From: Ridgeia piscesae
Taxonomy: Eukaryota > Annelida > Polychaeta > Sabellida > Siboglinidae
Length of the DNA: 64,000 bases
Reading direction: 5' to 3'
Assembly (NCBI GenBank): GCA_025642075.2
Contig: JAODUO010001586.1
Location: forward strand, 32,405 to 96,404
Part shown: positions 4,879 through 63,260 of the stretch, piece after piece
How the letters are laid out: each line of letters starts with the position of its first letter
Numbering within the stretch: position 1 is the first letter of the stretch
Position numbers and translations under genes: made by a program
The notes under the pieces: generated by a model
Databases searched by the model: none
Seen by the model: the letters and a program-made list of their open reading frames with translations, nothing else
What the model was told of the DNA's origin: nothing

Positions 4879-5008
4879 TTGCTTTCACTTTCTTGATTGA
4901 AAAATATTGTGTCATCTCTAACATGGATATACATTCGTGATGTATTGTAGACCGCTACACGATTTCCACCATCATAGTCTGCACATGCAATTTGTGCAGG
5001 TGTTGATC
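4879..5008 (-). CDS. Module 2 exon 6: LDLR class B blade 5
   Basis: 130 bp, phase 1 to 2, acceptor TTTGCTACAG and donor GTAAGT. The translation contains STPAQIACADYDGGNRVAVY, the DxDGGNR strand of a class B repeat, then VRDDTIFFNQESES. The unpaired cysteine in ACADY is shared with exon 6 of module 1. It is the last exon recognised in the window, so the gene continues past position 1 after an intron of at least 4.9 kb. Confidence 0.88.

Positions 5009-63260: not shown

What the first reader, a model, noticed from the sequence alone, without database searches (positions are those of the whole stretch)
4879..63260. Whole multi-exon cassette (sushi + YWTD propeller) duplicated in tandem with all intron phases conserved
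Six exon pairs agree in order, phase and, for the sushi and blade-3 exons, exact length (180 and 160 bp). The protein appears to be built from repeated sushi-propeller units, an architecture I do not recognise as a named receptor. Both window ends cut the gene, so more modules are likely. This makes it a candidate for a large, poorly described modular surface protein that grows by cassette duplication.
Basis: partly seen in the sequence, partly recalled or inferred. Interest (0 to 1): 0.8.

Follow-up and report, generated by a model that had tools for sequence, protein, structure and literature searches.

The report
Tubeworm sushi and propeller mosaic gene
This stretch is part of a very long gene, probably from a deep-sea tubeworm, that builds an extracellular protein from two known kinds of building block in an unusual order, and it shows signs of growing by copying its own exons.

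Summary
On the minus strand two cassettes of six exons (one sushi, five propeller) lie in the same order with AG/GT sites and identical intron phases; their proteins are 46% identical. Sushi passes Pfam in cassette 2 only, and PF00058 in neither, but profiles match YWTD propellers of LRP2, LRP4, LRP6 and LDLR (E down to 2.2e-40). The window ends a 96,404-base contig of a 628-Mb genome. The closest protein found is from the vestimentiferan tubeworm Ridgeia piscesae. Outside the window the same strand continues with a probable closing exon for cassette 2 and 16 more sushi exons. So two cassettes head a sushi array; it is not a string of cassettes alone. One sushi pair was copied recently with its intron (93% DNA identity). 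Best reading: a hybrid extracellular recognition or adhesion protein, probably part of the published vestimentiferan sushi expansion. Transcript, membrane anchor and ligand are unproven. In this assembly cassette 1's closing exon carries an in-frame stop. Whole-genome counts of cassettes could not be obtained.

The parts
63081..63260 (-). cassette 1 sushi exon, 180 bp, phase 1-1
   Evidence: 59% identical to the cassette 2 sushi; does not itself reach Pfam Sushi
62693..62806 (-). cassette 1 blade-1 exon, 114 bp, phase 1-1
55638..55766 (-). cassette 1 blade-2 exon, 129 bp, phase 1-1
53353..53512 (-). cassette 1 blade-3 exon, 160 bp, phase 1-2
37965..38125 (-). cassette 1 blade-4 exon, phase 2-1; 161 bp with the longer donor, 149 bp (from 37977) with the shorter
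25930..26056 (-). cassette 1 blade-5 exon, 127 bp, phase 1-2
24159..24240 (-). cassette 1 closing exon as far as its first strong donor; phase 2 start; in-frame stop at 24173-24171 in this assembly
   Evidence: 16 residues identical to Ridgeia P0001
23182..24203 (-). minisatellite arrays (60 and 62 bp units) that repeat the closing exon's end with its 5' splice site
22099..22278 (-). cassette 2 sushi exon, 180 bp, phase 1-1
   Evidence: Pfam Sushi 28.9 bits, cut-off 20.7
19887..20015 (-). cassette 2 blade-1 exon, 129 bp, phase 1-1
19095..19217 (-). cassette 2 blade-2 exon, 123 bp, phase 1-1
17255..17414 (-). cassette 2 blade-3 exon, 160 bp, phase 1-2
6409..6572 (-). cassette 2 blade-4 exon, 164 bp, phase 2-1
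4879..5008 (-). cassette 2 blade-5 exon, 130 bp, phase 1-2

Best explanation
This is an internal part of one long gene of a siboglinid, probably vestimentiferan, tubeworm. It encodes a modular extracellular protein: at least two cassettes of one sushi (CCP) module plus a YWTD-type beta-propeller, followed by at least 16 more sushi modules. Shown: the exons, phases, domain homology and the downstream sushi exons on the same strand of the same contig. Inferred: that they are joined in one transcript, that the protein is secreted or membrane-bound, and that it works in recognition or adhesion, with propellers and sushi modules as binding surfaces and the array as a long stalk. Phase 1-1 exons let sushi modules be added without breaking the frame. 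Two mostly alternating sushi types and a recent two-exon copy suggest fast diversification, as expected of a protein facing microbes or other variable ligands.
For: Twelve exons with AG/GT sites and matching phases; homology far above shuffles and more change at third codon positions, pS 0.51 against pN 0.34; YWTD propeller profiles; Sushi in cassette 2 and in 15 stretches of a joined model holding 16 sushi modules; downstream sushi exons and the probable closing exon of cassette 2; nearest protein from Ridgeia piscesae, E 2e-50; 150 scored sushi matches in the same genome; published sushi expansions in Riftia and Lamellibrachia, with a suggested role in symbiont recognition (passages); recent sushi-pair copy.
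Against: No transcript. Cassette 1's closing exon has an in-frame stop here. dN/dS near 0.53 is only mild constraint. Pfam PF00058 fails, and cassette 1's sushi fails PF00084. The sushi array also matches Pfam HRM (7 stretches, 68.9 bits, cut-off 26.2), which I read as a cross-match but did not test. The species, the gene ends and the role are inferred. The Riftia paper reports no significant adult expression of its sushi genes.
Confidence: 0.55

Rival explanations
1. It is a member of the LDL-receptor/LRP family: an endocytic receptor whose propeller helps release ligand at low pH.
For: Propeller profiles match LRP2, LRP4, LRP6, LDLR; the Ridgeia relative has an EGF module after its propeller (Pfam EGF).
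Against: A scan for phase 1-1 exons with five or more cysteines on the contig showed none that looked like EGF or LDL-A by eye; sushi modules flank the propellers instead. Tail and membrane span not seen.
Confidence: 0.12
2. The locus is a decaying or broken gene, at least in cassette 1.
For: In-frame stop in the closing exon of cassette 1; heavy load of minisatellites and transposons; mild constraint.
Against: Twelve of twelve window exons are open with splice sites, and an open phase 1-1 sushi exon was found at 16 of 16 downstream places (phase 1-1 was required by the scan). The stop lies at the head of a tandem array, where assembly errors are likely (inference).
Confidence: 0.15
3. The two cassettes belong to two neighbouring genes, each a sushi-propeller protein.
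For: No intact exon linking cassette 1 to cassette 2 was found in the 3.6-kb gap.
Against: Cassette 2 starts with a phase-1 acceptor exon, so it is not a first exon. A promoter or first exon in the gap was not specifically sought.
Confidence: 0.15
4. It is a structural matrix protein of tube, cuticle or basal lamina, not a recognition protein.
For: Sushi and YWTD modules also occur in matrix proteins; a paper on red coral skeleton lists both kinds in separate proteins (passages).
Against: Rapid copying of sushi pairs fits variable ligands better (inference); no direct evidence either way.
Confidence: 0.25

Closest known systems
Ridgeia piscesae NP493_275g00009 (P0001)
   Same: Propeller blades 1-3 about 64-81% identical by exon and 16 of 16 residues identical at the start of the closing exon; E 2e-50
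   Different: 482 aa; the model lacks blades 4-5 (my reading), has an EGF module after the propeller, and no Pfam Sushi match
LRP2, LRP4, LRP6, LDLR propellers
   Same: YWTD-type propeller by profile
   Different: In these the propeller comes with EGF modules and the family with LDL-A modules (PMC8469001, passages); here sushi modules flank it
Sushi-domain proteins expanded in Riftia and Lamellibrachia
   Same: Sushi modules; probable same clade of worms
   Different: The passages I saw do not mention a propeller
Complement factor H and similar sushi arrays
   Same: Tandem sushi modules; weak sequence match
   Different: No propeller (recalled)
P0007, P0008 (long sushi proteins)
   Same: Sushi arrays, E 7.8e-11 and 1.8e-5
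   Different: Their listed Pfam domains include Sushi but not PF00058; P0007 was read and shows no propeller by eye

Membership tests
Sushi (PF00084) protein | Pfam Sushi above the curated cut-off | tested here: met
   Cassette 2, 28.9 bits against 20.7; 15 stretches of 16 modules in the joined model, E 9.5e-100. Cassette 1's sushi alone: not listed
LDL receptor class B repeat (PF00058) | Pfam PF00058 match | tested here: not met
   Not listed for either cassette at E up to 10, nor for the joined model at E up to 1
YWTD beta-propeller (wider homology) | Profile similarity to solved YWTD propellers | tested here: met
   LRP4 4e-24; LRP2 2.2e-40, LRP4 8.1e-29 over profile 10-233 of 242. Fold not predicted
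LDL-receptor family | EGF modules next to the propeller | tested here: not met
   Sushi exons flank the propellers; no EGF-like exon by eye in a limited scan (phase 1-1, at least 5 Cys, 75-330 bp). No profile scan of the introns
LDL-receptor family | LDL-A modules | tested here: inconclusive
   None by eye in the same scan; both gene ends are missing
LDL-receptor family | Transmembrane span and NPxY tail | not testable with these tools
   The gene's ends are not on the contig part read
Vestimentiferan sushi expansion | Host is a vestimentiferan | tested here: inconclusive
Vestimentiferan sushi expansion | Orthology to a published Riftia or Lamellibrachia sushi gene | not tested
   Those sequences were not found or held here

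The most novel reading that the evidence does not exclude
A lineage-specific hybrid family, LRP-type propellers fused to growing sushi arrays, is a fast-diversifying recognition system of tubeworms that helps larvae tell their symbiont from other bacteria, with exon copying and minisatellites born at exon ends as sources of variation.
Probability: 0.12. Interest if true: 0.85.

Novelty: new variant of a known kind. Interest (0 to 1): 0.5.

Why it matters
Both modules are old and common, but a propeller set between sushi modules and duplicated as one cassette appeared in no paper passage I saw from two searches for the combination and in no protein returned by three database searches. Tubeworm genome papers already name sushi genes as candidates for host-symbiont recognition. 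This gene offers a concrete candidate to test, and a clear case of a protein growing by phase-compatible exon copying at two time depths: an old cassette duplication and a recent sushi-pair duplication.

Tried and rejected
Rejected: chance resemblance (shuffle controls). A hidden EGF or LDL-A module: of the rows listed none looked like one by eye; most are repeat units, the rest include a variant of a known sushi exon and stretches near transposons. A prokaryote or virus source: 27 and 17 pattern matches, none encoding a relative. P0007 as a relative in architecture (a sushi array with no propeller by eye). The first linker scan missed cassette 1's closing exon because I required an open frame up to a phase-1 donor; it was found through the Ridgeia protein.

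Led nowhere: naming the species, finding the gene's 5' and 3' ends, and counting cassettes elsewhere in the genome (the tool did not complete). The structure predictor was not used, because the spliced protein is not read letter for letter from one stretch of the window.

Papers, passages by word search only: PMC7853314, PMC3534327, PMC9921365, PMC6862839, PMC10192322, PMC8789280, PMC3372519, PMC8469001, PMC5331069, PMC12783039. All others: search listings only, PMC9935665 among them. Statements about absence from print rest (0 and 3 papers), which required the word lancelet, found 0 and says little.

Full report
WHAT WAS CHECKED. A self-comparison of 666 minus-strand open segments outside masked repeats gave the sushi, blade-1, blade-4, blade-5 and blade-3 pairs near the top, with one other-frame sushi row and one local repeat among them. 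The cassette-1 blade-2 segment was lost to my own mask there; the pair showed weakly in an antisense frame. Exact boundaries show AG/GT sites at 12 of 12 exons and phases 1-1, 1-1, 1-1, 1-2, 2-1, 1-2 in both cassettes, on the minus strand from 63260 down to 4879. Sushi exons are 180 bp and blade-3 exons 160 bp in both, as stated; the other pairs differ by 3 to 15 bp. Over 275 aligned codons the cassettes are 46% identical; each pair beats 1000 shuffles by 7 to 21 standard deviations; pS is 0.51 and pN 0.34, which gives dN/dS of about 0.53. The duplication is old: beyond exons, a short intron edge and one kind of minisatellite, only two other weak matches remain, of 78 and 96 bases.

DOMAINS. 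Pfam finds Sushi in cassette 2 (28.9 bits, cut-off 20.7) but not in cassette 1, and PF00058 in neither at E up to 10. A two-sequence profile finds LRP4 at 4e-24, then LRP6, ROS, LDLR and nidogen. A propeller-only profile of both cassettes plus the Ridgeia piece finds LRP2 at 2.2e-40 and LRP4 at 8.1e-29, the latter over positions 10-233 of 242. So the propeller is a diverged YWTD propeller that the Pfam model misses. No fold was predicted. The sushi array also matches Pfam HRM above its cut-off; I take this as a cross-match of cysteine patterns, untested.

WHERE IT COMES FROM. A search of 5.8 billion proteins (only the 7993 candidates sharing most words were scored) gave six hits, the best being Ridgeia piscesae NP493_275g00009, E 2e-50, 69% identity over 16% of the query. 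The window is bases 32405-96404 of a 96,404-base contig in a genome of 628 Mb and 4875 contigs. That size equals none of the published ones seen: Ridgeia 575, Riftia 561 and 554, Lamellibrachia luymesi 688, Paraescarpia 1091, Oasisia 808 Mb. I therefore say siboglinid, probably vestimentiferan, and name no species.

BEYOND THE WINDOW. On the contig downstream, the best of five phase 2-1 exon candidates (30913-30837, 77 bp) fits as the closing exon of cassette 2 and aligns with the start of cassette 1's closing exon. Sixteen further sushi exons follow (27723 to 14677). A scan that required phase 1-1 found an open exon at 16 of 16 places: 15 of them 180 or 183 bp, while for S9 it chose a 159-bp form that lacks the first cysteine, although the open frame holds it. 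In a joined model with 16 sushi modules, 15 stretches pass (E 9.5e-100). A Thr-rich linker exon candidate lies before the last four sushi. S4 to S14 fall into two kinds, mostly alternating (S6-S7 and S10-S11 break the order); one kind is a supported clade (99/99), the other is seen from pairwise identities of 72-97%. Of 15 inner branches one is well supported and seven are open. The two cassette sushis and S3 group at 77/75. Exons S5-S6 with their intron are 93% identical over 598 bases to S11-S12: a recent two-exon copy.

THE WEAK POINT. Cassette 1's closing exon starts at 24240 and shares 16 of 16 residues with the Ridgeia protein at its start, but here the frame meets a stop at 24173-24171, before the strong donor after 24159. 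This lies at the head of a 60-bp minisatellite. Lesion, haplotype or assembly error cannot be told apart here, so the join of cassette 1 to cassette 2 is inferred.

HOW IT MAY WORK. From module types (established knowledge, recalled): propellers offer broad binding faces, and sushi arrays make long stalks with binding sites. No EGF or LDL-A exon was seen between modules in a limited scan, so the pH-release role described for the EGF-propeller unit of LDL receptors (PMC8469001, passages) is not a safe guess. [quoted passage not shown] The Lamellibrachia paper reports a large sushi expansion with a similar suggestion (PMC6862839, passage). That this gene belongs to that expansion is likely but untested.

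NOVELTY. A full-text search for sushi with YWTD gave 3 papers; I saw passages of two and the listing of the third, and no passage describes this layout. I rate it a new variant of a known kind: a new combination of known extracellular modules in a gene that grows by exon copying. The number of such genes in the genome is unknown, because the whole-genome protein search did not complete.

Noticed in passing
window 24203-23182, and contig C1586 14702-12460 outside the window: Two minisatellites whose units carry an exon's 3' end with its 5' splice site: 60 and 62 bp units at cassette 1's closing exon (12 donor-like matches), and about 30 copies of a 76-bp unit at sushi exon S18 (28 exact copies of the TCAAG|GTAGT junction, the exon's own included). 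They multiply candidate splice donors; effect on splicing unknown.
   Followed up: partly
window 53284-47767 and 17136-15007: Minisatellites of related motif (about 77% identity) start some 70 and 120 bases after the blade-3 exon in both cassettes, as if the repeat was there before or spread after the cassette duplication.
   Followed up: partly
window 7375-11058 and 12383-14944: A large inverted repeat inside a cassette 2 intron, long pieces 95-98% complementary, with a DDE_1 transposase fragment in the middle and a CENP-B-like DNA-binding piece in one arm.
   Followed up: partly
window 28330-29412, 34445-35275, 43397-44716 and 59303-59743: Retroelement reverse transcriptases inside cassette 1 introns: the first three match RVT_1, the fourth looks alike by eye only. 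An open frame at 32245-33429 with a GDSL-like match lies just before the second.
   Followed up: partly
genome G000, for example contigs C177, C1231, C777, C25: 150 of 591 sushi candidates were scored and 150 matched, many in clusters; in eight 3-kb stretches around the best ones no propeller exon of this gene was found at E 1e-4.
   Followed up: partly
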